A stretch of 64,000 bases of DNA from Pyropia yezoensis (taxonomy: Eukaryota > Rhodophyta > Bangiophyceae > Bangiales > Bangiaceae), in NCBI GenBank assembly GCA_009829735.1, contig CM020618.1, forward strand, positions 9,453,119-9,517,118, in the 5' to 3' direction. The notes below the pieces were generated by a model that worked only from the letters and a program-made list of their open reading frames with translations, did not search any database and was not told the DNA's origin. This document shows, in pieces, positions 3,669-58,134 of the stretch (positions within the stretch are counted from its first letter, which is position 1; each line of letters starts with the position of its first letter). Made by a program: the position numbers and the translations under genes.

Positions 3669-3673
3669 ATAAA
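3669..3673. repeat. inverted copy of element D target-site duplication (ATAAA)
   Basis: ATAAA directly abuts the D LTR. The partner TTTAT is at 5419-5423, next to the other LTR and in inverted orientation. In an intact aORF (copy B, near 15427) the undisturbed target reads AAGTTTATCGAG, so both pieces come from one site. Confidence 0.8.
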
Positions 3674-4621
3674 CTTGTGGAGGCGGAGCATCTCCTCAAG
3701 TAGAGTGAGTTGTCCTGATGAGCACCCCTCAGCAACTAGCTGAGGGGTGAGCTGTTCCAAATCTTGGATAAGCCGGAGGGGGAGACGCCAGAGCATCCCC
3801 CGCCGCTGAACACAAGACACCCAGGTCGACATGACCTCGAGGAGCCACTGGGTGGCCAACATGGCCCACACCAGGTGATCAGGGGCAGCCGTCAACATGA
3901 CGGAGCCGAAGTGGTCAAGCAACCGGGGAAACAACGCCGGGAACCCGTAGGGGACCTCAACTTGAGGCCACCACTCGGGCTTCTTCGGATAGTACTGCTC
4001 CTTACTGGCAGCAGACTGCTGAGGGAACTCAAGTTGAGCCGAGGTCACCAAGTAGGGACCTCGCCGGAAGTCCTTCTCCATCCGCACATCAAAGTGATGA
4101 GTGTGCGGATCGGCCTCGTGAAGGTACGGGGGGCGAGTTGCCACCGCGTCCCAAGTAAAGGTCGGCAAGTCGCCGGGACCCGGGATAGTTCCCCCGCGGT
4201 CCACCATGGCCTTGGCCCGCTGTATGTCTTCGACCTCCTCGTCGTCCAGGAAGGCAAACTGGTCCGTCCTGAAGCCGGCAGGGAACCCGACCCTACGGGG
4301 ATACTTCTCCCGTAGGCGGTCCCATACCCGACCCATCGCTGCGCCAAGTCGGCCACAGCGAAGAACAGTCAATCCCTCCTCATATAGAGGCCAAGCGGGG
4401 TAAAACCACCGCCCCAAGGCCTCACGCGGGACAACTTGTCCCGCCTCCGGGGGAGATCCCGCCGTCAACCCAAAGCCGGGTGACGCGGGAGTCCCATCCC
4501 CCGGAGCGATCGCGGAGCCCCCGCCGGAAGTCCCGGCGGGCGCTGCACCGTAGGAGGTGTCCTCCATACGCTCGTCGAGAGAGTCCGTCTCCACTCCCGG
4601 GGTCGCCATGGCTCTCCCCAA
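3674..4621 (-). pseudogene. antisense ORF (aORF) of element C, N-terminal part, inverted fragment
   Basis: Encodes MGRAMATPGVETDS through ...LTLLEEMLRLHKF, matching about the first half of the intact 704-aa aORF of element B. It stops where element D inserted (AAGTTTAT). The rest of this aORF is on the opposite strand at 5419-5605 and 22870-23695, so this fragment has been inverted. Homology continues upstream of the ATG to about 4790 (leader rich in Ser/Pro, RPTLGRPPVYPRSESPSTRGG), but one extra base near 4640 breaks that frame. Function unknown; see the entry at 14321. The stretch 4800-4949 carries the noncoding LTR-proximal hairpins and purine tract. Confidence 0.8.
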
Positions 4622-4949: not shown

Positions 4950-5418
4950 TGTGGCAGTATTAACCCCCAGGTAGGGGGGCAACACGTGCCATGCAAGGGG
5001 CGGCAGGCCACTAGCCTGATCCGTTCCTCCCCCTGCATTTGGGTCCATATTCCCTAAGTTTGGGATAGTTAGCTTAGTAGTAAATCCAACTGGGATTTGA
5101 GGGTTTTTTGCATTTATCGTCTTGAATTTTCGTGTGGCCCGGTGGGCTGGTGCTGGGGTGGGAGATTCTGAGTGGCGAGATTCTGAGGGGACCCTGGGGG
5201 GATAAGAGGAGGGACAGCGGGGCTTGGCCCTGCGTCCCCGTCACGACCAAGAAACTGTTGGACCACACACCATCCTCTTGTTTGTCAGTGGAGGGTTTGC
5301 CCTACAACAGGGACAGAGTGTGTGCGACTTGCACTTCTTCCGGTTCCCCCGACACGGGAGGCAGCCCTTGTACACCGCCCCAACTTGGGTGAGGTGTGTG
5401 CAAGTGGTTTTTGCCACA
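4950..5418 (+). repeat. hybrid C/D LTR (469 bp) at the inversion breakpoint
   Basis: A complete plus-orientation LTR (TGTGGCA...TGCCACA). Its left neighbour is the 3'-terminal region of element C; its right neighbour is the TTTAT target duplication of element D. It shares a D-specific variant (ACTGGG near 5088-5095) but has the common TTAGC, where D has TTGGC, a little to the left. A chimaera formed by recombination between a C LTR and a D LTR explains both flanks. Confidence 0.75.
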
Positions 5419-5423
5419 TTTAT
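5419..5423. repeat. element D target-site duplication (TTTAT)
   Basis: Five bases after the LTR end; they match in inverse ATAAA at 3669-3673 and continue the aORF reading (TTTATCGAGTG). Confidence 0.75.
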
Positions 5424-5600
5424 CGAGTGAGAGAGCATTGAGCACAAGTTGCGCCGCCCCACTCGTCGGCCCAAGGACGATGGCGCACTTCGCCAGATCG
5501 TGTGGGTCGCTCTTGAACTTCACGACGGCCGTGTGGTCCTACGAGAGGGGTTGGGCGTCGGGGACTACCCGTATGCCCCGGGAGTGGATCGCCACACTGC

Positions 5601-5605
5601 GCCAC
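5601..5605. repeat. target-site duplication of element A (GCCAC), left copy
   Basis: GCCAC precedes the 5' LTR and recurs at 22870-22874 right after the 3' LTR. With A removed the aORF of element C reads without a gap (ACTGCGCCACCCCCGG), as in copies B and G. Confidence 0.95.
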
Positions 5606-6176
5606 TGTAGCATCCGTGGCCCCGACTTGGCGCCGACCCGGGACTACAACCAGAGGGCACCAGGTGCCAGAACACGCCCGCCGTGTGGTGATGGTTGGCG
5701 GCCGTGGCCCGTTCCCGGCACTGGGATGCGGTGGACTACGCTATCCACACGTGTGAGAGGGATTTCTGATGGGTTTTTGCATACTTGTGAGGGACTTGAT
5801 TTGAGAGAAATTGAGTGTGAGATTAGTGAGTGGGAATAGAATTAGTAGTGATAGTGGCCCCCGACCTGACGAGGTTAGACTCGGGTCGGGGCCACTCGGG
5901 GTTATGGGGGGGCTACCTGGCCAACGTGCCGAGGCTCCCCCAGATGGACGTTAAGAGGGACAGCGAGGCGCCCTTGGCCCGCGCCCTCAGGAAAAAGACA
6001 ACTGCGCGTTTGCTTTCCTCTTCCCCGTGTGCACTACCGTGCGTATCTGTATGCTCTGCGAGCAGGCACGTGAGGCAACAGGCATACCATTCTCGTAGTT
6101 CCCCTTTCTGTGTTACCTGTCCCTTTCCCCCGAGGGATATTAACACGTGTCTGAGAGGATTGAGTTTTATACCACA
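5606..6176 (+). repeat. 5' LTR of element A (571 bp)
   Basis: Starts TGTAGCATCC and ends TATACCACA. Near-identical to 22299-22869. Unrelated in sequence to the 469-bp family-B LTR apart from the TG...CA ends. An AT-rich stretch at about 5755-5850 is the only low-GC part. Confidence 0.95.
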
Positions 6177-6180
6177 TATT

Positions 6181-6198
6181 TGGTGGAGCAGCAGGGGA
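6181..6198 (+). promoter_or_regulatory. primer-binding site of element A
   Basis: TGGTGGAGCAGCAGGGGA, four bases after the LTR. Identical to the site in family B although the LTRs are unrelated. Confidence 0.7.
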
Positions 6199-6388
6199 TT
6201 GTCGGAGTGATTGGGAAGAGACATTTGGGAGCAGCGGTTGGGTTGTTCCTGTTCTGTCTTTTTCTGTGGTTTGGGAATTATTTGCACCCGTTCACGGGAA
6301 TCCCATTCCGGGCTCTCCAACCCCTCTCTTGTGGTCTTGCGATCTTTGGACACGCAGGTAACTGGATTGTGGCTGTCAAGAGACCAAC

Positions 6389-8149
6389 ATGGCTACCCTC
6401 CCTGGCACGACAGTGCCCGAATGGGTAGACCCCGCGTCCCTTGACGCATCCCTGGTCACCGCGGGGGACGGTGCCCAACCCGGCGTTCTTCCTACGGGTG
6501 AAGCAGACCTGGGTGTGACATCCGGTAGCGGACTGGAGTCTACAGGCGGCCAAGCACCCCCTGCTCCCGTTCCTCCGGCTGTTCTTCCTGTGGGAGCCAC
6601 CCCGGGGTCAACGGCGTTTGAGTCCGCTCGCAGCAGACGTCTCTCTCCTGTCGGTTCGACTCCTCAACCTCCAGGGATAGCCCCTGGTGTGTTTACTCCT
6701 GGACCCACACATGGCAGCTGGGTGTATACACCTCTTCATGTGGGCACAAGCAGTGCCGGAGGCACCGCTGTGACTGGTTCTACGGGTCTCCCTGAGACCT
6801 CGACTTCTGGGACCGGCCAAGCTTTTCCTCCCCTTGCATCCTATGGGGCGGGGTGCTCTAAGACCGGTAACCGAAGCAGCCGGAGGCGTCGGCGTCGTCG
6901 CCGTCGCTCTAGCACGAGCGAGACCAGTTCCTCCAGCTCTGAGGAGGGATATGACTGGGATGCATCTCCCGGTCCCACCTGGCGCAGGCTAGTCGAGTTT
7001 GACTGCCCTGCCCACCAAGTGGGAGATGCCACCCTGAACAAGGTCACGTATTGGGGTAACTACCGGCTGGAGAACCAAGACCAAGGTTACACCCGGAAGA
7101 TGGCCAAGAAGATGGCATCCCTGAACCGGGGAATGCAGCCGAGCTTCGGGGGACATCCTAAGTTTTCCGGGAAGAGACCGGCGCTTATCTTTGCCTTTCT
7201 GCGCCGGTTTGTCAAGGCATGCAATGACAACGATGTGTCCGAGGGCAAGGCTCTCTACCTCCTGGTTAACTTCATGACCGGAGAAGCGGAACAGCGGTTT
7301 GCACAGGTTCTACCAGACTCTACCGGACACATTGTCGGGCGTACCGTTGGGAGTTATCCGGAGGCAGTCAACTGGCTCCTGTCCAACTACGCTGACGCGG
7401 ACTCCCTGCGTAAAGCAGTCGGCAGACTGAACCGGGCAACCATGGAGAAACAAGAGACTCCAGAGGCCTTCGCCCGTCGTGTCCGGGAGATGAGCAAGGC
7501 TTGTGGCAACGTTTACCCTGAGGACAGGCTCAAGATGATCTTCTCGGAAGGGCTTCCTGAATATCTTCAAGTGGATGCGGAGAACTACAACCAGGAACAT
7601 CAAGAAAATACCTTCCGGCAGTTGATGGCCTACACCCAGGGCAAGTACCGGCAAGCCAAGGCCCTCCAAGCTCCCATGGTATCAACTCCCAAGCCGTTGT
7701 CGCGAGTTCGTCCCGGACCCGACAAGTATAAGGGAGGTGATAGCCCTGTACCGGTACTCGCAGTTGGCGAGGCCTCACCCGTGGGGTCAGGGGGCAAGTT
7801 GGGCGGCTTCGTTTCTAAGGAGCAACCTTCTCTGGTCGCCCCCAAGCAGGTCAAGAACCAGCGGTTCCGGTCTTGCTGGCTGTGCTAGAAGGAGGACCAC
7901 ATGTCCTACCAGTGCCCGACCATTCCCAAGGATCTCCAGGAGAAACTCAAGCGTCAAGGACTGGTGATTGCAAAGGCGGTCAACTGGGCTGACCGGCGAG
8001 CACCCTCCAAGATGGACAAGGCACAGGTACACGCAATCCGAGTGGCAACCTTACAGAGCATCACGGAGGCTCTGGCAAGGGAAGCTCCTACGGACTTCGA
8101 CCTGGAGACCAAAGCCTCGAAGGACTCCTCGGACCCGGGAAACGAGTAG
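6389..8149 (+). pseudogene. gag: gag of element A, one in-frame TAG in the zinc knuckle
   Basis: 586 codons from MATLPGTTVP. Residues 1-150 are Gly/Thr/Pro-rich and disordered, followed by an Arg-rich run (SRRRRRRRRR, about residue 165) and a Ser-rich acidic patch. Residues about 240-420 form a retrotransposon capsid domain (FLRRFVKACNDNDVSEG...). Near residue 500 comes one CCHC knuckle, interrupted by TAG at 7886-7888 right after its second Cys (CWLC-stop-KEDHMSYQC). The frame continues to ...GNE-stop at 8147-8149. Gag forms the capsid and packages RNA. The TAG is one C-to-T change from CAG; programmed readthrough cannot be excluded but would be an odd place. The ATG context (CAACATGGC) is acceptable. 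Confidence 0.88.
8137..8143 (+). promoter_or_regulatory. -1 ribosomal frameshift heptamer GGGAAAC, element A
   Basis: In the gag frame the site reads G GGA AAC, two codons before the TAG stop, a canonical X-XXY-YYZ-type slippery sequence. After a -1 slip the next codon (CGA, 8143) is in the pol frame, which is then open. The same heptamer occupies the same place in family B. Confidence 0.7.
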
Positions 8150-11100
8150 GGCAGGCGCTCTCCCCAAGTGTCTTCCCGAACCTCCAACGGCAGGGTACTT
8201 CTACCCGGTCTCCTCTTGCGTGCCGGGAGAAAGGACGGCAGTTACCTGCTCAACTGGTAGCCGCCTGGACACCCTGTTTGTTCAAGGGGACCTTGCTTGT
8301 CCTGCGTAAGGAGAACCTCAAGATTAATGCTCGTATGCGTGTGGGGGATAGCCTCCCCCAAGCTGTTACGCCGGTGATTGACACGGGAGCCGGACCAAGC
8401 GTCATCACTGAGAACCTGTTACCTCCGGGCTGGCGTCGACATGCCTGGAGAGCGCCTACCAAAACCCACATTGTCGACGCATCAGGTCAAACCCTATGAC
8501 CGCTGGGCCGCCTTCCCGTCGCCATCTATGTCAACAATGAACCAATGCTTTTTCCCTTTCTAGTAGTCAAGACCCTATCAGTCCCCCGTATCCTAGGCTG
8601 GGACTTCCAGAAGCAGCATGTCAGGAGCATCCTACCCGGAGAAGGGAAGGTGCAGTTCAACCATGGGTTTGTGTCACCGGTATTGGAGCATCTGGACGCC
8701 AAGGTTCGTGTAGCCAAGAACAAGAGGGAACGCATCCCACCCTCTACCTTGACTCTCTTCAAACCGGTGCTCCTACCTCTTCGCTCGGAGACCAAGGTTC
8801 AAGTAACGACCCGGATTGCAGGTCAATGCCTGATCTACGGACGTAAGGAATTTCTGGCGAAACACCGGTTATACTTGGCCCACGGACATCACAAGAAGGT
8901 AGAAAGGCACACCCCGTTCTCGGTGCTGATCGTCAACGTGAGCCGGAAGCCAATAACCCTCGCCAAGGGCACCCGAGTTGGTACAGCAGAGCCTTACCGG
9001 GGGTCCGCCCGTGCTATGAGCAAGGAAGACCTCTTGAACCTGCAACAAGAGCTGGCATCCAACTTGACGGCCTTAGACGTCCCTCCGAGACAAGAGCAGG
9101 CTGGCAGCGCTACTCCGAAGCCCGAACAAGCACCACCCGGGATGCCGAAGGTCAAACAAGAAAATGTCCCTCCCGACTTCAAGGAGGCACTGGAGAAGCT
9201 TCTCCAGGAATATCGGCACCTGTGGTCGGGAGAGCTGTGCAAGATGGACGCCACTCTGCACCGGACTCAACTCAAGCCGGAAGCTACGCCAGTACACCTG
9301 CAACCATACCGGGCTGGACCTCATCGCCGGGATGAGATTGAGAAGCAGGTTAACAAGATGCTCAAGATGGATGTTATCGAGCCGTCTGATGGCGAGTGGG
9401 CCTTCCCGGTGGTAGTCGTCCCGAAACCTGGCGGTCACTTCCGCTTCTGCGTTGACTACAGGCGCCTGAACGAGAAGACCGTCAAGGATGTATACCCGAT
9501 ACCCCGGATGGATGATTGCATCGACTTTCTTGGTGATGCCACCCTCTTCTCGACGCTGGATTGTAATGCCGGTTACTGGCAGATCCCTTTGGCTGACGAG
9601 GACAAGGACAAGACCACCTTCACGTGCCACCTGGGACTATTCCGGTGCAAGCGTCTTCCTTTTGGTCTCACCAATGCTCCGGCCACCTCCCAAAGAGCCA
9701 TCGACATCATCCTCTCGGGGCTAAGGTGGAGAACATGTTTGGTCTACCTGGACGACATTATCGTTTTCTCCAAGACCCCAGCGGAACACCTGGAGCACCT
9801 TTGAGAGGTCCTGGCCCTCCTGTCCAAGGCTGGAGTTACCCTCAAGGCCGAGAAGTGCCACCTGTTTGAGACTAAGGTGGAGTACCTGGGGCACGTGCTG
9901 AGTCCGGGGGAGCTCCGAGTCAATGAGAAGAATATCAAGGCCCTCCGGCATGCACGGCAACCTGAAACCCAGACGGAACTCAAGAGCTTCCTGGGTATGT
10001 GCAACGTCTACCGCCGGTTCGTACGGGACTATGCTCTGATTGCCCGGCCATTGATCAAGCTCACCAGCAAGAAGCTTCCCGCACGACTCCCGGTGTTCGA
10101 CGAGAAGCAGACCGCGGCCTTCGAAGAGCTCAAGAAGCGCCTGACCACCACTCCAGTACTGGCGTTACCCAAGCGGGAGGGCCAGTTTGTTCTGGAGACT
10201 GATGCCTGTGGCGTCCAGGTGGGGTTCTCACTACTCCAGCAGGAACCTGATGGGCACTTCCTCCCGATAGGCTACTACAGTCGCGTCCTGACTCCAGCCG
10301 AGAAGAGTTATTCCACGACGGAGCGCGAGTGCTTGGCGGTCGTGTGGGCTTGCTTCCTGTTACGTCCATATCTTGAACGACAAGAGTTCCTCATCCGGAC
10401 GGACCACGCCAGCCTAAGGTGGCTGCTATGCATGGACAGCAGCCATGGAAGGGTCGCCCGGTGGTGCTTACGCCTTTCGGAGTTCAAGTACAAGGTGTGC
10501 AACAGAGCAGGGAGGGAGCACCACTGCGCCGACACCATGTCCCGGCTGGAGACTCCTGCAGCCGACACCGGTCCTATTCCGGAGGAAATACCTTGCTTCA
10601 TCCTCCCGAATGTTGGACGTGGCTGGCACGCCCCCCTGTATGAGACACCTGAAGCTCATCAACCGGTGACCATTCACCGGATGCTGGAGGCACAACTGAC
10701 GGATCGTCAATGCTTGGAGCTTCGCCACCAAATGGACCTGAACCGGAACAGTCGTTTCTCCGAGTCTACAGATGGACTCCTGGTACGGGTGTCACCCTTC
10801 GATGGGGCAACTCAAGTCTACGTACCCCAAAGTCTGCGAGCTGACATCCTACGCCTGGAGCACTCGTCCCCCCAGGCCGGACATCCTGGCATCAATCGGA
10901 TGTATGCTTCAATGCGACGACATGACTACTGGGAGACCATGGCCAGCGACGTCCATAAGCACCTGGAGGGTTGTGTTTCTTGTGCAAGGAACCGGTTGTC
11001 CCAGAGGAAGAATACTTCTAAGCTACGCCTATTCCCGGCGGCGGAGCCCTTTGCAAGCTTAATCATGGACAGCCTGGGGCCCCTACCTGAAGCATCCAGC

Positions 11101-12237
11101 GGCAACATATACCTGCTCATCATTTGTGACCAGTTCTCCAAGTTCACTCGAGCAATCCCGCTGAGGACCGTTACGGCTCTGGATGTCACGTCAGCCTTCT
11201 GCGAGTACTGGATAGCTGCCTACGGCCCTCCAGACTCCGTCTTAACAGACAATGGCCCCCAGTTCGCATCCCTGTTCTTCCAAGGAGTCTGTGACCTGAT
11301 GGGCATCAAGAACTTGTTGACCACGACGTACCACCCGCAAACGAACGGCCAGGTGGAACGATTCAACCGGACCCTAGTGGATATGCTAAGGCACTACGTG
11401 GAGGAGCACCAAGAAGACTGGGATGAGCTCCTGGCTGTCCTCACTCTAGCCTACAACTCCCGAGTTCACCGGACAACGGGGGTCGCTCCACTCGACTTTG
11501 TCACCCCAAGGCAGCTGACCAACTTCTCCCTGGAAAGAAAACCAGACGGTCTCCAGCCTGCATTGAAGTCAGGTCCCAAGGCCAAGGATGAGTTCCTGGA
11601 ACAACTGAAGCTCCTGCTCCCCAGAGTCAAGGAGTCAATCTCAAAGACCCAGGAGCGATACAAGCGGGACTATGACAAGGGAGTCCAAGAAAAGAACAAG
11701 GAACTGGGTGGTGGCGACTGGGTTTTTGTGGACAACCATAGCAAGACCCGGGGGAAGCTGGACTCTAAGACGGATGGACCTTATCAGATCCTGAATACGG
11801 ATGGCTGGACCTTTCTTCTAGACGTGGATGGCTCCCCGTACCGGGTGAGCAGCGACCATGTCACCCGAGCTCCACCGCCAAGCAAACGGGACTTGACCCG
11901 GCGCAAGCGGGCCGCAGTCCCCTGGCTATCCCAAGAAGAAGGCCGGGAATATGTCTATGTCAAGTTTGTCGACCATGCCTGGACAGACGGGCGCCTGTAC
12001 CTGCGAGTACGCTGGTTCGGTTTTAACCCGGCAGATGATACTTGAGAACCCTCAAACCGGTTACCCATCGCGGACGTCTGCGCCTACACGCGACGGAACA
12101 GGATTGAGGGCACTCCGGTGGCCAGAGCCGGCAAGATCCTGGAGTCGGACTCGGAGGAGGACCAGGAGGACGGGGCCGATCAAGACCCTCAGGATGAGCC
12201 GAGCTCACCCGCATCGGATGCGGAACAAGAGGGTTGA
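8143..12237 (+). pseudogene. pol: pol of element A (protease, RT, RNase H, integrase, chromodomain), three stops
   Basis: One continuous frame, -1 to gag, broken only by TGA at 8497-8499, 9802-9804 and 12043-12045. Protease: IDTGAGPS near 8390 and ILGWDF near 8595. RT: FCVDYRRLN near 9450 and YLDD at 9744-9755. RNase H: ETDACGVQVG near 10200 with TERECLAVVW and DHASLRW. Integrase: HHCC zinc module near 10860-10990, catalytic D (MDSLGPLP, about 11065), D (TDNGPQFAS, about 11250), E (PQTNGQVERF, about 11350). C-terminus: a chromodomain (YVYVKFVDHAW...LRVRWFGFNPADDTWE) cut by TGG-to-TGA, then an acidic tail. The first two stops fit CGA-to-TGA. The enzyme set would copy element RNA and integrate the DNA; this copy cannot. 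Confidence 0.92.
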
Positions 12238-12382
12238 GAAGAAGGGAACGGGTATATCAAGGAAAACACGCAATGCAAGCATGGAACAATCAAGGAAAAC
12301 AAGCACCCGCTCGAGCAACCCTTCTCTCCGCCTCTTCCCCCCTCCCTTCTCCCAAGACTATCACCCTCATTGCCTCCAAGTA
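12238..12382. other. short spacer between pol and antisense ORF of element A
   Basis: 145 bp separating the convergent 3' ends of pol (+) and aORF (-). No recognisable signal seen. Confidence 0.5.
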
Positions 12383-13684
12383 CTACTCCCGGCGCGGACG
12401 CTGTGCCGCGGGAGCGTCCTCCAGCGCTGCCTCCGCGGCACGACGGGAACCGGAAGAAGGCGGGATGGCGTAGTGCGGTGGGCGCGGTGCATCCAGGTAT
12501 GACGCCGTCGGAGTAGTACCGGTAGTTGCCGGGCGCTCCCGCTCATCCAAATATGCCTGTCGGCGCCCCTGGAAGCCAGTGAAGGTCTCTGACCACTGCT
12601 TGGCCAAGCCATGCCGCGTCAAAGTCGCCAGAAGTTCGCCAACCACCGGGCTGTCCGACATCTCGCCGCTGTCCGCGCAAGCAAACACCCGGTCAACCAC
12701 GTTGTTCAAGACGCTGGCGTAAGTACCCAGCACCAGGGAAGACCCGACGCCTTCAACCTGCACCGGAAGACGACCCAGCTGGTCTTCAATCATACCGACG
12801 TCGTACTGGTCGCATGTCGGGCCACCTTGGTTCCGGTACCAGTCAGGCACCCGGAAGCGGGTAAGGCGCAGAGTCGGCGCCGGGATCTCGAGCCGCCCCG
12901 ATGATGCCATTACCGGACGATCCACAACAGCCCCAGAAACCGGAGTCCCCAACTCCAGCGGAGGCACAGGGCCGCCGACGTTTGAAGAACGCGTCCGAGG
13001 CAGAACGGCCGGAGTAGTCGGCGACCGCATGGCCACCCATAGACTCGCTGCAGACAAGCGCGGTGTCGGAGGAGCTTGAAGCACCGGCACAGACGGACCG
13101 GAACGCAACCGCGCCGACGACGGTCCAGGCGAAGCCGCCGGGACGACAGGTGCAACAGGAGCAAGCGGAATCGCCGCAGACGCCCGACCGACCGCCGCGG
13201 CCCATCCCGACTCTCGCACCGGCGGCCCAGTTGGCAAAAGATCGAGGGCGACCGGAGCAAGAAAGCTGCCCAGCTGCGGCCACGCCGGAAGCGGTGTCGC
13301 TAGCTGCACCTTGGCCGGAGAAGACTGGTAGACCACCTGCACCCAACCGAAGCCATCCCAACGCGGGCTGTTCTGGTCGGCGATCGCGTTCAAGAAGCTC
13401 CGGTCATGCACCGGCAGCCGACGCCGGAAGTCAATCATCGCCTGGAGGAGCTCCTTGTACTCCTCGTCCTGGCTGCACAGGAAGTCGACGGTCAACTTGT
13501 CGACGATCCAGACCATCAGGAGGTCTGGGACAAACCAAAGCCGGTTGGACACCAAGACCTCGTGGAGCCAGTGGTTGGCCGCCAAGACCGTCGTCTCGGA
13601 GGTGTACATCATGTACGGGATCGAGTGGAAGAAGCCCTTAATCGACGCCTGGGTCAAATCGTCCAAGACGTACCAGGTAAAGGG
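12383..13684 (-). pseudogene. antisense ORF (aORF) of element A, C-terminal part
   Basis: Open for more than 430 codons on the strand opposite to gag-pol, ending ...AAQRPRRE. When element B and one AAGGG copy are removed, the frame joins 21291 onwards without a break (..APSSIPF-TWYVLDD..). The segment AANHWLHEVLVSNRLWFVPDLL...LLQAMIDF aligns with LATQWLLEVMSTWVSCVQRR...LRLHKF of the family-B aORF, so the two families share this protein. The remainder is Ala/Pro/Val-rich with a region near VPDWYRNQGGPTCDQYDVGM. No known domain recognised. Transcription would have to start near the 3' LTR and run antisense through the element. Confidence 0.75.
13680..13684. repeat. target-site duplication of element B (AAGGG), left copy
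   Basis: AAGGG here and at 21291-21295 flanks the two LTRs of element B; one copy is needed for the aORF of element A to read through. Confidence 0.95.
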
Positions 13685-14153
13685 TGTGGCAAAAACCACG
13701 AGCACACACGGCACCCAAGCTGGGGCGGTGTGCTAGGGCTGCCTCCCGTGTCGGGAGAACCGGAAGAAGTGCAAGTCGCACACACTCTGTCCCTGTTGTG
13801 GGGCAAACCCCCCACGGACAAACAAGAAGATGGTGTGTGGTCAAACAGTTTCTTGGTCGGGACGGGGACGCAGGGCCAAGCCCCGCTGTCCCTCCCCTAA
13901 TCCCCCCAGGGTCCCCTCAGAATCTCGCCACTCAGAATCTCCCACCCCAGCACCTGCCCACCGGGCCACACGAAAATTCAAGACGATAAATGCAGAAAAC
14001 CCTCAAATCCAAGTTGGATTTACTACTAAGCTAACTATCCCAAACTTAGGGAATATGGACCCAAATGCAGGGGGAGGAACGGATCAGGCAAGTGGCCTGC
14101 CGCCCCTTGCATGGCACGTGTTGCCCCCCTACCTGGGGGTCAATACTGCCACA
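13685..14153 (-). repeat. 3' LTR of element B (469 bp)
   Basis: TGTGGCAAAAACC...ACTGCCACA read on the plus strand, i.e. minus orientation. Differs from its partner at 20822-21290 at several positions, for example in the first 80 bases, so the insertion is not brand new. Confidence 0.95.
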
Positions 14154-14320
14154 CTCCCCTCTCCTCAGTTCCGACCGACCCGGTCGGCCCTGTGAGGGGG
14201 TGCGTAAACGCACGTCTCGGCGTTGGGGGCGCGACTTGCTGTTCCCCAGCGTGTACGTAACGCGGATGTGGATGCGGTCACGTTGACCGCCCCTCTCCTC
14301 AAGCTTGCCCACTCGGCAGC
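14154..14320. other. LTR-proximal leader with polypurine tract and two hairpins
   Basis: On the minus strand the polypurine tract GAGGAGAGGGGAG abuts the LTR (14154-14166). Then come an odd palindrome at 14175-14187 (CCGACC-C-GGTCGG) and a hairpin at 14200-14213 (GTGCGT-AA-ACGCAC). Seen from the plus strand this is the leader of the aORF. The same elements recur in copies C and G; copy E keeps only the first. Confidence 0.55.
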
Positions 14321-16435
14321 TTGCTTTCTTCAGTTCACACTTCACCTTCACCACCACCTCCCTTTCACTTTCCACTGGGCCGCCCCACGCTGGGGAGGCC
14401 ACCCGTATACCCACGATCCGAGTCCCCCTCAACTCGAGGCGGGTCTCGTGCTGCGATAGCCAGAGCGTCTCTCCCCAACTTGGGGAGAGCCATGGCGACC
14501 CCGGGAGTGGAGACGGACTCTCTTGACGAGCGCATGGAGGACACCCCCTACGGTGCAGCACCCGCCGGGACTTCCGGCGGGGGCTCCGCGATCGCTCCGG
14601 GGGATGGGACTCCCGCGTCACCCGGCTTTGGGTTGACGGCGGGATCTCCCCCGGAGGCGGGACAAGTTGTCCCGCGTGAGGCCTTGGGGCGGTGGTTTTA
14701 CCCCGCTTGGCCTCTATATGAGGAGGGGTTGACTGTTCTTCGCTGTGGCCGACTTGGCGCAGCGATGGGCCGGGTATGGGACCGCCTACGGGAGAAGTAT
14801 CCCCGTAGGGTCGGGTTCCCCGCCGGCTTCAGGACGGACCAGTTTGCTTTCCTGGACGACGAGGAGGTTGAAGACGTCCAACGTGCCAAGGCCATGGTGG
14901 ACCGCGGGGGAACTATCCCGGGTCCCGGCGACTTGCCGACCTTCACGTGGGACGCTGTGGCAACTCGCCCACCGTACCTCCACAAGGCCGATCCGCACAC
15001 TCATCACTTTGATGTGCGGATGGAGAAAGACTTCCGGCGAGGTCCCTACTTGGTGACCTTGGCTCAACTTGAGTTCCCTCAGCAGTCTGCTGCCAGTAAG
15101 GAGCAGTACTATCCGAAGAAGCCCGAGTGGTGGCCTCAAGTTGAGGTCCCCTACGGGTTCCCGGCGTTGTTTCCCCGGTTGCTTGACCACTTCGGCTCCG
15201 TCATGTTGACGGCTGCCCCTGATCACCTGGTGTGGGCCATGTTGGCCACCCAGTGGCTCCTCGAGGTCATGTCGACCTGGGTGTCCTGTGTTCAGCGGCG
15301 GGGGATGCTCTGGCATCTCCCCCTCCGGCTCATCCAGGGTTTGGAACAGCTCACCCCTCAGCTAGTTGCTGAGGGGCGCTCATCAGGACAACTCACTCTA
15401 CTTGAGGAGATTCTCCGGCTCCATAAGTTTATCGAGTGGGAGAGCATTGAGCACAAGTTGCGCCGCCACACTCGTGGGCCCAAGGACGATGGCGCACTTC
15501 GCCAGTTCGTATGGGTCGCTCGTGAACTTCACGACGGCCGTGTGGTACTACGAGAGGGGTTGGGCATCGGGGACTACCCGTATGCCCCGGGGGTGGATCG
15601 CCACACTGCGCCACCCCCGGACAAGCCCATAGTTATGGCCGTGCCCTCACATGATGAACATATGACTCAACCCACTGCGGGAGCCCCAAGTCGGGGTCGC
15701 AGTTACACCCGGGTACCGCCACCTCGGCGGGCTCCTCCGCTTCCTCCGGTTCCATTCCAACCTCACGGGAACATCCCGATCAGCGTGGCCGTGGAGTCTT
15801 CCACCCCGGTGTCCCCCAACTTGGGGGCCACCCTCCTGACGGTATACCCCAAGTTGGTGTTGCCGCCCACGCCTCTAACCTCGGAGATGATGATCACCAC
15901 GTTGGTGCGCACCATTTCCTGGTTGGCCGCGTCGACCGCAACCCTTCAAAGTTCCGAGACTCCTCAACTTGAGGAGCGCGTTCGTACTGCAGTAGCGACC
16001 GCGAGTTGCGAGTCGGTGGCGGAGTTTATGACAGCCGAGTTGGCTCGTATTGGGGCTAGTATGCCCCAGCCAGCCCCACTTGGGCGTGGCAAACGTCGCG
16101 CGAGCCGAACATACTCGCCTCCTCGCCGTCGTCGCCGACACTCTCGGCGCTCTCGCTCCGTGTCGGAAGACGAGTTGTCTTACTCCGTCTCGGAGGCCTC
16201 TACCCCGTCGGAGACGGAGTCTGTCCAGCGTCTGCGTCGCAAACTTGCGCGCAAGACCAGGCAGAAGAGTGGCCACGGTCGGCGCCACTTGCGCGACCGT
16301 GAGGGGCGCGACGGTTCCGACTTGGAGCCGCCGCCCCCTCCAACGAGTGGAGACCGTTATCGGCGTGGGTCTCGCCGCTCGCCTCCACGGGAGGGCGAGG
16401 GCCGTGGAGTGGGAGAGTCTAGCATGCGTGCCTAG
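14321..16435 (+). CDS. antisense ORF protein (aORF) of family-B retrotransposon, intact 704 aa, unknown function
   Basis: Longest intact copy of a frame lying between pol and the 3' LTR on the opposite strand. Residues 1-60: Ser/Pro-rich leader. About 100-370: an aromatic-rich globular region (ALGRWFYPAWPLYEEGLTVL; PHTHHFDVRMEKDFRRGPYL; YYPKKPEWWPQVEVPYGFPA; a hydrophobic stretch LVWAMLATQWLLEVM). About 380-430: basic WESIEHKLRR and ARELHDGRVVLREG. About 440-600: Pro-rich linkers and a helical segment. C-terminus: Arg/Ser-rich (SPPRRRRRHSRRSRS, then RKLARKTRQ and RGSRRSPPREGEG), likely a nuclear or RNA-binding tail. No known family recognised; not an Env-like protein (no signal peptide, no clear membrane anchor). 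The first ATG is used because the preceding 57 codons are conserved in copies E and G; the ATG at 14492 (GCCATGGCG) is an alternative. Conservation in the divergent family A argues for a real protein. Confidence 0.75.
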   Translation: MLSSVHTSPSPPPPFHFPLGRPTLGRPPVYPRSESPSTRGGSRAAIARASLPNLGRAMATPGVETDSLDERMEDTPYGAAPAGTSGGGSAIAPGDGTPASPGFGLTAGSPPEAGQVVPREALGRWFYPAWPLYEEGLTVLRCGRLGAAMGRVWDRLREKYPRRVGFPAGFRTDQFAFLDDEEVEDVQRAKAMVDRGGTIPGPGDLPTFTWDAVATRPPYLHKADPHTHHFDVRMEKDFRRGPYLVTLAQLEFPQQSAASKEQYYPKKPEWWPQVEVPYGFPALFPRLLDHFGSVMLTAAPDHLVWAMLATQWLLEVMSTWVSCVQRRGMLWHLPLRLIQGLEQLTPQLVAEGRSSGQLTLLEEILRLHKFIEWESIEHKLRRHTRGPKDDGALRQFVWVARELHDGRVVLREGLGIGDYPYAPGVDRHTAPPPDKPIVMAVPSHDEHMTQPTAGAPSRGRSYTRVPPPRRAPPLPPVPFQPHGNIPISVAVESSTPVSPNLGATLLTVYPKLVLPPTPLTSEMMITTLVRTISWLAASTATLQSSETPQLEERVRTAVATASCESVAEFMTAELARIGASMPQPAPLGRGKRRASRTYSPPRRRRRHSRRSRSVSEDELSYSVSEASTPSETESVQRLRRKLARKTRQKSGHGRRHLRDREGRDGSDLEPPPPPTSGDRYRRGSRRSPPREGEGRGVGESSMRA

Positions 16436-16546
16436 TTGGCAGCTGCCTTTGTTGTGAGAGTGTCAGGGTTAGGGCTGTAGTTAAAAGCCACTCTGCGTAC
16501 CACTTCGACTTGAAGCACTCTCGTGGCACTGTTGCTCGGCCTTCCC

Positions 16547-18762
16547 TCACGTTGAGGGAGGGCTGTTAGGGTCTATCTCATTCCGGGCACAGTACGCCCG
16601 GACCTTCTCAGCAGGAAGGTCCTCCACGTACTCCCATGTATCGTCCTTGGCTTTGTAGCCAAACCAACGCACCCTCAACATGAGGCGGTCAGTGTCTTCA
16701 TCCCATCCGTGGTCGATGAACTTATCGAACACGTACTCCTGCGGGCCCTGTTTGGCCGCAGGCAGTGAGGGGAGGCGCCACGACTCCAGCGCACGAGCCC
16801 AAGCTGGGTCGCCTGCAGGCGGTGGTGCAACTTTGACCACGTCCTGTCCGTTCACTGTGCGGACCCCATCGTCACTTTCGATGGTGAAGCGCCGCCCATC
16901 AGTACGAAGGACCTGGTACGGTCCCTTCGTCTGGAATGCCAGCTTACCCCCAGTTGGGGTGTGCGAGTGTACCAGCACCCAGTCACCCTGCTTGGGGACA
17001 TGCTTAGCATTGCGCACCTTTTTGTCAAAGGTACGCTTGTAGCGCTTTTGTGCTTTGTCCATCTCAGCCCTGACTTTAGGGATGAGGTGCTCCAGCCCAG
17101 CAGCGAACTCCTCCTTACTCTCAGTAGGAGTAGGCGTACGGCCACTACCCTCCCCAGTTAGGAGCGACCGCCGCACGGCAATAGACCGCACACGACGGGG
17201 GGTCACAAAAGCGAGGGGTACTTCCCCTGTAGATGAGTGAACCTGCGAATTGTAGGCAGTAGTAAGGATAGAAATGTATTGGTCCCACGTCTTCACGTGC
17301 TCACTCACATAGTGGCGCAGCTGCCTAACAATAGTTTTATTGAGGCGCTCCACCTGCCTATTAGTTTCTGGGTGGTAGGGGGTGGCGCAGTGTGGCGATC
17401 CACCCCCGGGGAGTCCAGACAGTCATCCATCCTAGGTAGGGGATAACTGTCCTTCACCGTGCTCTCGTTGAGCTTACGGTAGTCGATACAAAACCGGGGG
17501 GTCCCGTCAACTTTGGGGACGATAACCACCGGACTCGCCCACTCGGCGTTGCTGGCCTCGATCACATCGAGGGCCTCCATGCGAGCAACTTGCTCCTTAA
17601 CGAGGGCCCTTAAACGGGGTCCTCCCCTATACGGTTGTTGGCGTATAGGGGGTGCACCGGGCTTCAACTCGATCCGGTGTTGGGTAGCTCTCATGAGTCC
17701 CAATTGGCCATCCCACAACTTGTGATATTGGTCCAAGAGGCGTTCAACTCGAACCCTCAACCTGGGGGGAACACCCTCCATGTTCACATGAGGCCGAGGA
17801 GAGGTGGCCGACTTGGCTTGATGCTTCTCCTTTCCGGACTTCGGGTCGCTACTTGCGCCCGCGTTGAGGGTGACCGCTACTACCGGTCCCTCATGTTGGT
17901 CGATATAGCCGAACTTGGCTCCCGACTTGAAGTACTTGGGCGTCGGACTCAGGTTCATCACCTGGATCCTCCACGGGACTCCGGCTTTGGAGTCCATCGT
18001 GCCAAGGGCAACATGCACTTGGTGCTTGCGAGCAAGACGGGGGTTAGGGTGCACCAACCCGTTCCCCGAAAAATCAGTTACAACGTCAACGTGCGCCACC
18101 GAGTTGGGGGGCAACGTGACTTTGCGGGCTAAACGCAGGGTAGCAGTAAACCCTTCCCTCACAGAGCAAACAGGCTTCGACTGTGAGACTGTCACAGGAG
18201 CCACGGACTTTCCCTTACCAAGGATGGGGATAGTCTCCCCATTCATCAACTTGACCCAGTACTCGGGGCCACAGATCAAAGGCACTTGTGTTACGACATA
18301 AGGGGTACCCAGAAGCAGGGGTACCGATATATTCTCAACAACACCATAGGTCACGTCGACCTCATGGGTCCTTAACCTAGTTGGTAGGGTCACGGCACCA
18401 ACGATGGGAAGTACCCCACCTTTGATGTCAATCATATGGTCAGCCTTGGACCTCCAGCGTTGGAGCTTCACCTCCTTTGGTAATAGCGACTTGCGCATCA
18501 AGGAGGCTCCTGACCCGGTATCAAGCACGATACGGGCACAACAGGCGCGGCCGGGGGCAAGTTGCACCCGTCCAGCCACCTGGAAGTTCTCACCCGTCAG
18601 CACCGCGATGACCCGACGTGGGTTTACGTCCTTGGGGAGTCCTACCCGAGGTGGGCGGACTCCCTTAGGTCGCCGCAGTATCCGGCACGGTTGGTTCGTC
18701 CTCCTGGCCCACTTGGCCGAGGCTGCCGTTGTGAGCTTCGGACGGCCAGCTCCAACGGTCAT
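16547..18762 (-). pseudogene. pol: pol of element B, about 1.8 kb deleted with templated filler
   Basis: N-terminal part (18762 to about 17412): protease DTGSGAS, post-protease region and RT start up to [10 protein letters not shown]-terminal part (about 17381 to 16547): integrase from [15 protein letters not shown] to the end, including the chromodomain (EYVFDKFIDHGWDEDTDRLMLRVRWFGYKAKDDTWEY). Compared with element G, the RT core with YLDD, RNase H and the first two integrase acidic residues are missing. The junction (17382-17411) holds about 29 bp copied from the aORF, and the two sides are out of frame. The start ATG overlaps the gag stop (ATGA). Confidence 0.9.
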
Positions 18763-20702
18763 TCGTTTCCCGCCGACTTGGCGTCCGAATCTGAGGGCGG
18801 GGAGGAAGACGACGAGTCCGAGGACGACGTGTCCGCCTCCTCCGCCGAGGGTGTGGCGACCGCGACGACCGGTCGAGACCCACCCTCGCGGCGAGAACGT
18901 ACTTCGTTCGTAGCCGGCTTCTTACTCGCATTTCTAACAAGTTGTTGGATGCGTTCACTCAACTTGGGGCAGTCATATGCCCAGTGTCCATCGGAGTTGC
19001 AGTTCTAACACCGATGGTCAGTTCCCGGAGGGGTCTTCCCAACTGGGGCAGACGAAAAGGTACCCTGGGAAGTTCCCACGGCACCTACCACCCTCTCCTT
19101 GCGGATTCGGCGCGCCTCTCTCAACTCTCTGGCTTGGTGCGCCTCCTCCCGTTCCTTGGCCAACTCGGCCTGACGCTCCTGGCGCTGTTCCTCCCGCAAC
19201 TTGCGGTAGGCCTCGCCTCTGCGATAGGCGAACCTGGCCAACTCGGCCAGGGTCGCCCGGGCAGTGTTATGCTCCCGGGTCTCCATCCGGACTGACCAAT
19301 GGAGCCCCTCCACAAACCGACTCTTCACCACAGCTTGTGGATGAAGAAACCCACAATGATTGTTGAGCTTACGGACTCGCTCCGCAAAGGACAACTCGTC
19401 CTCCGCCTCTTCCTGATGGGCTTGCGTAAACTCCTCGACTTGAGAAGCCAACGCTGCGTCATCAACCATGGCTCTCAACAACCAGTTGACGAGCTCCAAA
19501 TAGGACGTCACCTCCCCAGCGCCTCCACTTGAGGAGCTGGGCATGACGGACATAAGTTCTGTCCGCAGGTCTCCCTTCGTAAACTCCTGTAGCATGTAAA
19601 AAGCCATGCCTTCACTTATGGCATTGTCGTCACAGGCTTTTGTGAAACGACGTAGGAACTCAAAGACACGGAGGGGGGGAGTTCCATCCCACTCCGCTTT
19701 GTGCCCAAAAGAGTGAAGTGCATTCTTCTTGGCACGGCCCATAGCTCGGGCCTGGTCAGGACCATACGCCACCGACTTGTTGTGGAGGGCGTAGGTCTCA
19801 CAGTCAAAGATCCTCTGGTAGACCGGGTTGGCTACCTGAATCTTGGGCGGCACCTCACGTTGAGGGAACAGCCGCTGTGGCACTGGGGTAAGTTCACTCT
19901 CAGTGCCTGTAGTCTGGTACGGCGAGCTTGGTGTAGCCGCCGGCGTTTCCGAGGGGAACTCCCCCGTGAAGGGCGTACGCCCCACCGCGTATGGTGTGGC
20001 TCCCCCGTTGGGAGTCACAGGTGTCGCCCCCAGTTCGGGGCGACCCGAGGTAGGCGTGAGGAGGGATTCCCCCTGCGCCTGTGGGCTCGAAAGCCCCAAT
20101 CCGGTCTGGACATCAAGGCCATCTGGCAAACTCGCCACAATCTGATTCAGAATAGTATTCGTCATCGTGACCACCAGGTCCGGCAAAGTCTGCCGCAACA
20201 CATTGGTCGCCTCCCGACGGACAGTTTCCGCGAGGAGTGGATTGACGACTCCAGTTGAGTCTCGGTCCGCCTCCGGGAGTCCACCTGAGGGGTAACCACG
20301 TTCCTCAGGGGTCTCAACCGGGGGCCTGGGCGCGAGCCCATCACCGACCAACGGAGGTCCGCCGTCCTCCGAAAGTCTAGTTGGCGACGGCTCCATGCCA
20401 AAGTTGGCTCCAACCCGAGTGGAACCCGCGGGGACAGTCCTCACCCCTTGGGACGTTCCCGTTGAGTATACCACACGGTGGCCAGACTTCGGCCCACCCA
20501 CATCAGAAGTGTCACCCAAGTGAACTCCCGACTGAGTCGGGGTGGCCTGTTGCCCGCCCGCACTTCCAGTCCTGCTGGCTTGAGGGACCTGTCCCTCTGC
20601 GACCCCAGGTAAACCCACCTGTGTCTCACCAATATTCAAAGGCAATGAAGTACGTGCGTCACCCGTGTACTCCCCGGACGACGGGGGGTCCGAGCTAGCC
20701 AT
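18759..20702 (-). pseudogene. gag: gag of element B, TAG in zinc knuckle
   Basis: 647-codon frame from MASSDPPSSGEY. Open for 565 codons, then TAG at 19005-19007 replaces the Trp of the CCHC knuckle (C-W-N-C), followed by 67 open codons to ...GNE. Domain order as in copy D: disordered N-terminus, capsid (RRFTKACDDNAISEG), Glu/Arg-rich helix (LREEQRQERQAELAKEREE), knuckle. One G-to-A change explains the stop. A truncated Gag without its RNA-binding knuckle would be made. Confidence 0.9.
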
Positions 20703-20801
20703 GTTGGCTGACGATCCGTATGAGACGGTCCAAGACCACCGTTCCTCCGAGACAGAGGGCCCCCTACACCCGGGTGCACCCGGAGGTAAAGTTTACCTCT
20801 G

Positions 20802-20819
20802 TCCCCTGCTGCTCCACCA
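20802..20819 (-). promoter_or_regulatory. primer-binding site of element B
   Basis: TGGTGGAGCAGCAGGGGA on the minus strand, two bases from the 5' LTR. Confidence 0.7.
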
Positions 20820-20821
20820 AA

Positions 20822-21290
20822 TGTGGCAAAAACCACAAGCACACACGGCACCCAAGTTGGGGCGGTGTACAAGGGCTGCCTCCCGTGTCGGGGGAACCGG
20901 AAGAAGTGCAAGTCGCACACACTCTGTCCCTGTTGTTGGGCAAACCCCCCACTGACAAACAAGAGGATGGTGTGTGGTCCAACAGTTTCTTGGTCGTGAC
21001 GAGGACGCAGGGCCAAGCCCCGCTGTCCCTCCCCTAATCCCCCCAGGGTCCCCTCAGAATCTCGCCACTCAGAATCTCCCACCCCAGCACCTGCCCACCG
21101 GGCCACACGAAAATTCAAGACGATAAATGCAGAAAACCCTCAAATCCAAGTTGGATTTACTACTAAGCTAACTATCCCAAACTTAGGGAATATGGACCCA
21201 AATGCAGGGGGAGGAACGGATCAGGCTAGTGGCCTGCCGCCCCTTGCATTGCACGTGTTGCCCCCCTACCTGGGGGTCAATACTGCCACA
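20822..21290 (-). repeat. 5' LTR of element B (469 bp)
   Basis: TGTGGCAAAAACC...TACTGCCACA on the plus strand; followed by AAGGG, the right target duplication. Confidence 0.95.
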
Positions 21291-22280
21291 AAGGGGATGC
21301 TGGATGGAGCAAACCCGACCGGGATTTCGATTTCCTGCTGCTGCGGGATGACCTTGGGGTAGTACGCCGCCCGGTTAGCCTTGTCCAGCTTCCAGAACTC
21401 CTGATGGTTGCAGCTCACGAGGAAGTCACGCTGACGCCCGCGTCGCTCACCTTGCTCCCGTGCCGGCGACGACTTGGAGTATTTCCGGGTCAGGAAAGGC
21501 GGCTCCAGGGCAACCATGCTCGGACGGGGATCGCACTTCAGGCTCCCCGAACCCTTGAGCGCCTCGTCGCAGACCTTGAGCGCCCGGTGGACGTACCCTT
21601 CCTCCTCTGGTCACCGGAGAATGGACGCGGACACGCGACGCTCGGTCAAGGGTAGATCCAGCACCAGCGCGAGGGGGAGATCCTCCAGGCGAGCAACCCA
21701 AGAGGAACCCGAGAAGCTCTGCGAGCGGTCTTGTGCCAGGCGCATCTGGTCCGCCGTATGAAGACGAGTCTTGTCCATCTCGGTCAAGACCCCGCGCTGG
21801 AGTTCTTTCGCCAGATGTCCAAGAAGTCCTGTTGGCACTGGGCTGCGCTGGCGTTGCCGACCACCGTGGAGTAGCACCGGCCCGCCAGAGGATCCTGCCC
21901 AAGAAGCATCTCCGGGAGACCCACCGGAGGGATCTCGACCGAGTGCAACGCAGAAACCGGGGAAGCCCGATCCGTCCCCGCCGTAGCAACCGGCGCCGAC
22001 GCCGACACCCGAGGAACCGGAGGCAGGAGAAGGGCGCGACTACCCGAGTTCTCCTCCGCAACACTCGCCGCCGGAACCACGGGCCCAGCTTGGATCTCGG
22101 AACTGGACCTGACGTCCAGACTCCGGGGAAACGAGAGGGCCAAGGTGAAGGAGAAAGGGGGGGGGGGGACAGAATCGGAGCAGGTGATCGTGACCGGGGT
22201 GAAGACGCTCGACCTCGGCACCGGTGTGGACGTGCTCGAGGCTGTGCTCGGTGGCACCTGGTTCGGCCTGAGGACGTGCC
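21291..22280 (-). pseudogene. antisense ORF (aORF) of element A, N-terminal part
   Basis: Continuation of 12383-13684 beyond element B. Clear homology to the family-B aORF: RRGRQRDFLVSCNHQEF...AAYYPKVIPQQQEIEIPVGF against RRGPYLVTLAQLEFPQQ...QYYPKKPEWWPQVEVPYGF. Upstream, VGLPEMLLGQDPLAGRCYSTVV...QDFLDIWRK matches ALGRWFYPAWPLYEEG...VWDRLREK more weakly. Breaks: a TGA near 21611 (CGA to TGA) and a frameshift near 21800; the G10 run at about 22157-22167 leaves the N-terminus uncertain. No start codon can be fixed; the only long in-frame extension begins inside the LTR. Confidence 0.65.
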
Positions 22281-22298
22281 GGACTAGGGAGGGAGCTA

Positions 22299-22869
22299 TG
22301 TAGCATCCCTGGCCCCGACTTGGCGCCGACCCGGGACAACAACCAGAGGGCACCAGGTGCCAGAACACGCCCGCCGTGTGGTGATGGTTGGCGGCCGTGG
22401 CCCGTTCCCGGCACTGGGATGCGGTGGACTACGCTATCCACACGTGAGAGAGGGATTTCTGATGGGTTTTTGCATACTTGTGAGGGACTTGATTTGAGAG
22501 AAATTGAGTGTGAGATTAGTGAGTGGGAATAGAATTAGTAGTGATAGTGGCCCCCGACCTGACGAGGTTAGACTCGGGTCGGGGCCACTCGGGGTTATGG
22601 GGGGGCTACCTGGCCAACGTGCCGAGGCTCCCCCAGATGCACGTTAAGAGGGACAGCGAGGCGCCCTTGGCCCGCGCCCTCAGGAAAAAGACAACTGCGC
22701 GTTTGCTTTCCTCTTCCCCGTGTGCACTACCGTGCGTATCTGTTTGCTCTGCGAGCAGGCACGTGAGGCAACAGGCATACCATTCTCGTAGTTCCCATTT
22801 CTGTGTTACCTGTCCCTTTCCCCCGAGGGATATTAACACGTGTCTCAGAGGATCGAGTTTTATACCACA
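22299..22869 (+). repeat. 3' LTR of element A (571 bp)
   Basis: TGTAGCATCC...TATACCACA; a purine-rich run (AGGGAGGGAGC) lies just upstream at about 22286-22296. Followed by GCCAC (22870-22874). Confidence 0.95.
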
Positions 22870-23695
22870 GCCACCCCCGGACAAGGCCATAGTTATGGCC
22901 GTGCCCTCATATGATGACCATATGACTCAACCCACTACGGGGGCCCCAAGTCGGGGTCGCAGTCACACCCGGGTCCCGCCACCTCGGCGTGCCCCTCCGC
23001 TTCCTCCTGTCCCCTTCCAGCCGCACGGAGACATCCCGATTAGCGTGGCCGTTGAGTCGTCCACCCCGGTGTCCCCCAACTTGGGGGCCACCCTCCTGAC
23101 GGTATACCCCAAGTTAGTGTTACCGCCCACGCCTCTAACCTCGGAGATGATGATCACCACGTTGGTGCGCACCATTTCCTGGTTGGCCGCGTCGACCGCA
23201 ACCCTTCAAAGTTCCGAGACTCCTCAACTTGAGGAGCGCGTTCGTACTGCAGTAGCGACCGCGAGTTGCGAGTCGGTGGCGGAGTTTATGACAGCCGAGT
23301 TGGCTCGTATTGGGGCTAGTATGCCCCAGCCAGCCCCACTTGGGCGTGGCAAACGTCGCGCGAGCCGAACATACTCGCCTCCTCGCCGTCGTCGCCGACA
23401 CTCTCGGCGCTCTCCCTCCGTGTCGAAAGACGAGTTGTCTTACTCTGTCTCGGAGTCCTTGACTCCGTCAGAGTCGGAGTCGGTCCGGCGTCTGCGTCGC
23501 CAACTTGCGCGCAAGACTAAGCAGATGGGCAGCCGCGGTCGTCGCCACTTGCGCGACCGTGAGGGGCGCGGCGGTTCCGACTTGGAGCCGCCGGCCCCGC
23601 CGACTGGTGGGGAGCGTTATCGCCGTGGGTCTCGCCGCTCGCCTCTACGTGAGGGCGAGGGCCGTGGGGTTGGAGAGTCTAGCAGGCATGCCTAG
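22870..23695 (+). pseudogene. aORF of element C, C-terminal part
   Basis: Resumes after element A at APPPDKAIVMAVPSYDDHM and runs open to the stop, with the same Pro-rich linker and Arg/Ser-rich tail (SPPRRRRRHSRRSPS; RQLARKTKQMGSRGRRH) as copy B. The open reading here, with over 90% apparent identity to copies B and G, is notable given the damage elsewhere in element C. Confidence 0.8.
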
Positions 23696-46170: not shown

Positions 46171-46205
<35 letters not shown>

Positions 46206-46593: not shown

Positions 46594-46603
46594 CGGCGGG
46601 GAT

Positions 46604-58101: not shown

Positions 58102-58134
58102 CCGTTGGGGCTGGTCGTCCGAAGCTCACAACGG
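58089..58134 (+). promoter_or_regulatory. -1 frameshift signal GGGAAAC with downstream stem, and ATGA overlap
   Basis: In gag frame: G GGA AAC (58089-58095), then GAA TGA. A 6-nt spacer leads to a stem CCGTTG (58102-58107) pairing with CAACGG (58129-58134). The geometry fits programmed -1 frameshifting; after the slip CGA ATG ACC continues in pol. The pol ATG overlaps the gag stop (ATGA). The heptamer and overlap are conserved in B, C and D. Confidence 0.7.

What the first reader, a model, noticed from the sequence alone, without database searches (positions are those of the whole stretch)
14321..16435. Antisense protein conserved between two distinct chromovirus families
Between pol and the 3' LTR, on the opposite strand, lies an open frame of about 700 codons in every family-B copy whose 3' half is visible (intact in B; broken in C, E, G). 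A divergent homologue in family A aligns over at least 150 residues, e.g. YYPKVIPQQQEIEIPVGF against YYPKKPEWWPQVEVPYGF. The LTRs and gag N-termini of the two families do not align by eye, so shared nucleotide ancestry alone is an unlikely reason for the frame to survive. The tail is Arg/Ser-rich (nuclear or RNA-binding), the core aromatic-rich, and no known family is recognised. It could regulate splicing, silencing or nuclear import of the element.
Basis: partly seen in the sequence, partly recalled or inferred. Interest (0 to 1): 0.88.

Follow-up and report, generated by a model that had tools for sequence, protein, structure and literature searches.

The report
Antisense accessory gene in algal retrotransposons
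Two related families of jumping genes in what is probably a red seaweed carry, read backwards between their polymerase gene and their far end, a real and conserved protein gene of unknown fold, much like the poorly understood antisense genes known from some land-plant and fungal elements.

Summary
Window 14321-16435 (+) is a 704-codon frame antisense between pol and the 3' LTR of a minus-strand element (13685-21290); likely start ATG 14492 (647 aa). In-window copies give dN/dS 0.10-0.38 in this frame, 0.63 in one 61-codon piece. A context-matched null is beaten in 4 of 5 comparisons; two pol controls give 0.21 and 0.19. Of 63 scored genome copies, 56 have no stop (highest scorers only). Family A has a colinear homologue, split here by the B element: 73 of 97 scored copies lack a stop in the 432-aa part searched, and median dN/dS is 0.366 over 91 pairs. 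A and B proteins are homologous over about 170 residues. No Pfam, PHROGs, NCBIfam or PDB match; structure models were useless. The Arg/Ser tail is B-only. Antisense ORFs at this position are known in plant Grande/RIRE2/Retand and fungal Boty elements, so this is a new variant of a known kind. Being a selected protein-coding gene is well supported; its function, most likely nuclear regulation of the element's own cycle, is inferred.

The parts
14492..16435 (+). Antisense gene of element B from its likely ATG (647 aa); the frame is open from TTG 14321
13685..21290 (-). Host element B (family-B LTR retrotransposon), inserted in the antisense gene of element A; TSD AAGGG 13680-13684 and 21291-21295; its pol carries an internal deletion
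13685..14153 (-). 3' LTR of B; 456 of 469 positions identical to the 5' LTR (20822-21290)
14154..14168 (-). Purine-rich stretch next to the 3' LTR (putative polypurine tract, by eye)
14154..14491 (+). Leader between 3' LTR and ATG; the antisense promoter is presumed here or in the LTR, not shown
16547..18762 (-). Remaining pol fragments of B, convergent with the antisense gene
61695..63638 (-). Copy G of the antisense gene, one nonsense codon (codon 316)
58098..61583 (+). pol of copy G; 111 nt between its stop and the antisense gene's stop
34775..36716 (-). Copy E, divergent subfamily, two 1-nt deletions
3669..4609 (-). Copy C, residues 1 to ~371, ending at an LTR
5419..5605 (+). Copy D, first piece (residues about 370-431 in the 704 numbering)
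22871..23695 (+). Copy D, second piece (residues 431-704), beyond element A
5606..22869 (+). Element A (LTRs about 5606-6176 and 22299-22869), containing element B
21291..22110 (-). Family-A antisense gene, upstream piece; one in-frame stop at 21611-21613 and one frame change upstream of it
12383..13679 (-). Family-A antisense gene, downstream piece, open

Best explanation
Shown: the frame is a protein-coding gene carried by two related LTR-retrotransposon families, encoded on the strand opposite gag-pol between pol and the 3' LTR, convergent with pol, and kept by purifying selection about as strong as on pol. It was present before the A and B lineages separated. Inferred: it is an antisense accessory gene. 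An mRNA starts in or just inside the 3' LTR, runs through the gene towards pol and ends near the two facing stop codons. The soluble, probably largely helical protein acts in the nucleus on the element's own nucleic acids to regulate its cycle, for example level or export of genomic RNA or a step before integration. In family B a basic Arg/Ser tail adds nucleic-acid binding or nuclear targeting; family A does without it. The coding and selection part is about 0.96 likely; the nuclear-regulator part about 0.4.
For: Coding: in-window dN/dS in the frame is 0.198 (B-G), 0.278 (B-E), 0.286 (G-E), 0.129 (B-C), 0.098 (G-C), 0.322 (B-D2), 0.27 (G-D2), 0.264 (E-D2) and 0.384 (E-C). Observed against expected nonsynonymous changes are 21/42.3, 147/230.1, 8/21.1 and 25/40.4, with 0 of 2000 null draws as low in each. 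Pol controls give 0.210 and 0.193. Shared variants among 21 B copies are 35 synonymous and 3 nonsynonymous. 56 of 63 and 73 of 97 scored copies lack stops. Family-A dN/dS has median 0.366 over 91 pairs. Arrangement: 15 of 38 scored pol copies have a scored antisense match 117-120 nt away, 15 of 15 on the opposite strand. A-B homology. Function: B tail Arg/Ser-rich and no transmembrane segment (max KD19 1.23 in B, 1.54 in P0003). By analogy, Grande's antisense protein is nuclear and has its own promoter (PMC7264820).
Against: No transcript, promoter or protein evidence. The Arg/Ser tail is not shared by A. Structure models are useless (mean pLDDT 31.8 and 29.3), so 'helical' is only a weak hint. 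The short piece D1 shows no selection signal (dN/dS 0.632, 6 nonsynonymous against 7.0 expected, 643 of 2000 null draws as low). Two pol comparisons with B fragments gave 0.399 and 0.894; the latter was set aside as misaligned. The opposite-strand frame that shares the wobble position also has low ratios (0.18-0.52) but holds stops in every comparison. Genome copies were picked by protein score, which favours few amino-acid changes.
Confidence: 0.5

Rival explanations
1. The protein is a structural or particle component (a second Gag-like or chaperone protein), or an Env-like protein, made from an antisense mRNA, acting in the cytoplasm.
For: Purifying selection of the same order as on pol; low-confidence models show helices in the core.
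Against: No similarity to gag of either family (best E 0.30); no segment above the usual hydropathy limit of 1.6, which argues against Env; a particle protein would normally share the sense mRNA (inference).
Confidence: 0.25
2. The antisense transcript itself matters (dsRNA, silencing or interference with sense transcription), and the protein is secondary.
For: Convergent arrangement, 111 nt between facing stops in copy G; such a role is discussed for plant elements (PMC7264820).
Against: Constraint follows codon phase: 12, 6 and 47 variable sites at codon positions 1, 2, 3 of 647 each; 35 shared synonymous against 3 nonsynonymous variants. An RNA-only function does not predict that.
Confidence: 0.1
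3. The gene is a captured host gene or the remnant of another transposon carried along.
For: No similarity to gag or to known families.
Against: Protein searches found only three clusters, P0002-P0004, two of them near family-A or family-B copies; same place and strand in both families; low dN/dS. A weakly similar host gene could be hidden below the capped, element-filled result lists.
Confidence: 0.1
4. Chance long frame in GC-rich DNA, or shared nucleotide ancestry only.
For: GC is 63% and long overlapping frames occur in the host gene region.
Against: 0 of 1000 shuffles reach the length in B or A; A-B similarity appears in one frame only, the five other frames tested being at shuffle level.
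Confidence: 0.02

Closest known systems
[quoted passage not shown]
   Same: Position, orientation, presence in most or many copies, selection-like conservation, unknown function; Grande's protein is nuclear with its own promoter (PMC7264820, parts 1-2 of 3 read).
   Different: No Transposase_28 (PF04195), SMC or other Pfam domain here. Retand is a non-chromovirus lineage (PMC11963269, passages and abstract listing); B here has a chromodomain-like pol end.
Boty-like elements of Botrytis with antisense gene brtn
   Same: A non-plant LTR element with an antisense ORF at the same place (named in PMC7264820, and in passages of PMC8365987).
   Different: The original paper (Zhao 2011) was not seen and the brtn protein was not compared; whether Boty is a chromovirus was not checked.
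HTLV-1 HBZ and related retroviral antisense genes
   Same: Antisense protein with a promoter in the 3' LTR, nuclear regulator (described in PMC11963269 and PMC7264820 passages).
   Different: Not compared by sequence; only an analogy for mechanism. The gene here lies wholly between LTR and pol and appears unspliced in B.

Membership tests
Antisense aORF between pol and 3' LTR (as a structural kind) | ORF on the strand opposite gag-pol, between pol and 3' LTR | tested here: met
   15 of 15 neighbouring pol/antisense pairs are on opposite strands
Antisense aORF between pol and 3' LTR (as a structural kind) | Kept in many copies under protein-level constraint | tested here: met
Antisense aORF between pol and 3' LTR (as a structural kind) | Transcribed antisense from its own promoter | not testable with these tools
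   no RNA data
Retand/TRP28 proteins | Transposase_28 domain PF04195 | tested here: not met
   Pfam scans of B, A piece, P0002, P0003, P0004: no family
Chromovirus (host element, family B) | Ty3/gypsy-type pol with a C-terminal chromodomain | tested here: met
   RVT_1, RNase H, integrase domains and Chromo E 8e-4, the last below Pfam's cut-off (19.7 against 25.1 bits); PDB match to heterochromatin protein one, E 2.2e-5
Chromovirus (host element, family A) | C-terminal chromodomain | tested here: inconclusive
   Only E 0.082 to a chromobox protein; the frame read ends inside the region; pol is 46% identical to B's over 737 aa
Retroviral HBZ-like regulators | Nuclear regulator translated from an antisense transcript starting in the 3' LTR | not testable with these tools
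   analogy only
Env-like proteins | Transmembrane segment and sense orientation | tested here: not met
   antisense; max KD19 1.23-1.54

The most novel reading that the evidence does not exclude
These algal elements carry an ancient, independently evolved antisense regulator, a new protein family unrelated to the plant TRP28 or retroviral proteins, that predates the split of two families whose pol proteins are now 46-59% identical and diverges much faster than pol (about 25%), as expected of a protein that tunes its own element against host control or against rival families.
Probability: 0.3. Interest if true: 0.75.

Novelty: new variant of a known kind. Interest (0 to 1): 0.55.

Why it matters
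Antisense accessory genes of LTR retrotransposons are reported mainly from land plants, with single reports elsewhere, and their function is open. A strongly selected, sequence-unrelated example in another lineage, with dozens of uninterrupted copies in one genome, suggests that this genome position repeatedly acquires or keeps an antisense protein, and gives a clean comparative system (two families, several subfamilies) for asking what such proteins do.

Tried and rejected
Rejected: chance frame, since 0 of 1000 dinucleotide shuffles reach the length in B or A; RNA-only constraint, since variable sites follow codon phase; Env-like protein, from hydropathy; gag-derived protein, best E 0.30.

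Led nowhere: structure prediction of both families (mean pLDDT 31.8 and 29.3), so no fold search was made; PHROGs and NCBIfam; PDB by sequence (best E 0.66 and 0.42); three scans of viral contigs (no relatives). In one search the B5 pol fragment (dN/dS 0.894, 75% identity) was set aside as misaligned and B3 gave 0.399. In one search the reading frame I chose for copy E was wrong and its stop list was not used; E's state rests. Searches found no significant direct similarity of the A downstream piece or of P0004 to B.

Full report
What is there. The window lies in a 107.5-Mb genome of 11 contigs, three of them 43.6, 34.3 and 29.4 Mb. That and the GC content resemble what I recall of Neopyropia/Pyropia yezoensis, a red alga; the host was not tested. 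Element B occupies 13685-21290 on the minus strand, with 469-nt LTRs (456 of 469 identical) and the TSD AAGGG. It sits inside the antisense gene of element A (about 5606-22869, LTRs 563 of 572 identical over the stretch compared), which in turn sits inside another family-B copy, D. The antisense frame of B is 14321-16435 (+), 704 codons from TTG, 647 from ATG 14492.

Is it a gene? Length: 724 open codons against a maximum of 523 in 1000 shuffles; for the family-A downstream piece 433 against 402. Selection: dN/dS in the frame is 0.098-0.384 in nine comparisons of in-window copies and 0.632 in a tenth, the 61-codon piece D1. Four of the five other frames give 0.8 or more wherever a ratio could be formed; the fifth, which shares the wobble position on the opposite strand, gives 0.18-0.52 but has stops in every comparison. 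A null that keeps base and CpG context expects 42.3, 230.1, 21.1 and 40.4 nonsynonymous changes where 21, 147, 8 and 25 are seen (0 of 2000 draws as low each); D1 is not different (6 against 7.0; 643 of 2000). Pol of two other copies against G gives 0.210 and 0.193; two fragments of B's broken pol gave 0.399 and 0.894, the latter misaligned and set aside. So the antisense gene is constrained about as strongly as pol.

Genome copies. With the B protein, 63 places were scored of 16364 first-look candidates; 56 have no stop inside. Twenty of them were fetched: with the window copy they show 88 synonymous and 69 nonsynonymous variants (pN/pS 0.298); among variants seen in more than one copy, 35 and 3. 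These copies were ranked by protein score, which biases towards few amino-acid changes, so the in-window comparisons are the cleaner test. In seven genome copies the variable sites at codon positions 1, 2 and 3 are 12, 6 and 47 of 647 each, the leader has 19 of 338, the LTR 17 of 469. For pol, 36 of 38 scored main matches have no stop; 15 of those 38 have one of the 63 scored antisense matches 117-120 nt away, 15 of 15 on the opposite strand. The other 23 had no scored antisense match nearby, which the capped list does not allow to be read as absence.

Family A. The A gene in the window is broken three ways: the B insertion, one in-frame stop and a frame change. P0003 (583 aa, 87% identical to the downstream piece) reads continuously across the place of the B insertion and matches both window pieces, so the split is specific to this copy. 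Ten of the fetched genome loci L068-L078 are 97-98% identical to P0003 and one 87%, and other loci 73-85%. In the genome 73 of 97 scored copies have no stop in the 432-aa part searched. Among 14 chosen copies, five of them with stops, dN/dS over 91 pairs has median 0.366 (0.218-1.014). Several of the highest values are between copies that carry stops (0.74-1.01), as expected after decay, though the pair L039-L042, both without stops, gives 0.889 on few changes. These frames include some codons upstream of the likely start. P0004, from an unnamed source, is 57% identical to P0003.

A against B. The upstream A piece scores 85 against B (shuffle maximum 60 of 1000); the five other frames of the same DNA are at shuffle level; the downstream A piece alone is not significant. 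P0003 against B: E 5e-8, 25% over 138 aa. Profile comparisons align 172 and 171 columns with E 7e-5 and 2.2e-5. A full-length A protein scores 93 against B, with a maximum of 82 in 1000 shuffles. Pol of the two families is 46% identical over 737 aa and 59% over 235 aa; gag 32% over 222 aa. The antisense protein therefore descends from a common ancestor of both families and changes faster than pol.

What it might do. No family in Pfam, PHROGs, NCBIfam or PDB sequences. B has a tail with 31 Arg and 20 Ser in its last 130 residues; P0003 has 15 and 11, with one RS/SR pair. There is no transmembrane segment. AlphaFold models are not interpretable. The best-supported reading is an antisense accessory protein; that it is a nuclear regulator is an inference from the B tail and from analogy with Grande gene23 and HBZ as described in PMC7264820 (parts 1-2 of 3 read) and PMC11963269 (passages).

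Novelty. Antisense ORFs between pol and the 3' LTR are known for Grande, RIRE2, Retand, PvRetro13 and Boty. In ten searches of the open-access library I saw no listing about such genes in red-algal elements; most subscription papers are not held, and I opened only three papers. I therefore rate it a new variant of a known kind.

Noticed in passing
window 3200-5423: Two inverted LTRs (3200-3668 and 4950-5418) each end at the same antisense-gene target site, ATAAA (3669-3673) and its complement TTTAT (5419-5423); this looks like an element that integrated into itself with inversion.
   Followed up: partly
window 34775-36716 against pol 32409 onward: Copy E is a mosaic: dS against B is 0.37-0.49 over most of the antisense gene, falling to 0.23 in its last full window, while its pol has dS 0.21 against G; recombination between subfamilies is likely.
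   Followed up: partly
window 27108-28808 (+): A 566-aa ORF with a DDE_1 endonuclease match just at the Pfam cut-off (22.1 against 22 bits), a DNA transposon nested in a family-B copy.
   Followed up: partly
window 51231-53474 (-): A Cys-rich ORF built of 64-residue (192-nt) tandem repeats, no Pfam family.
   Followed up: partly
window 6176-6200 and 20800-20821: Families A and B share the sequence next to the 5' LTR (putative primer-binding site) although inserted separately.
   Followed up: no
window 46074-50132 (+) and 45641-47947 (-): Overlapping long frames on opposite strands, one with DEAD/helicase domains and one with a glycosyl transferase 2 domain.
   Followed up: no
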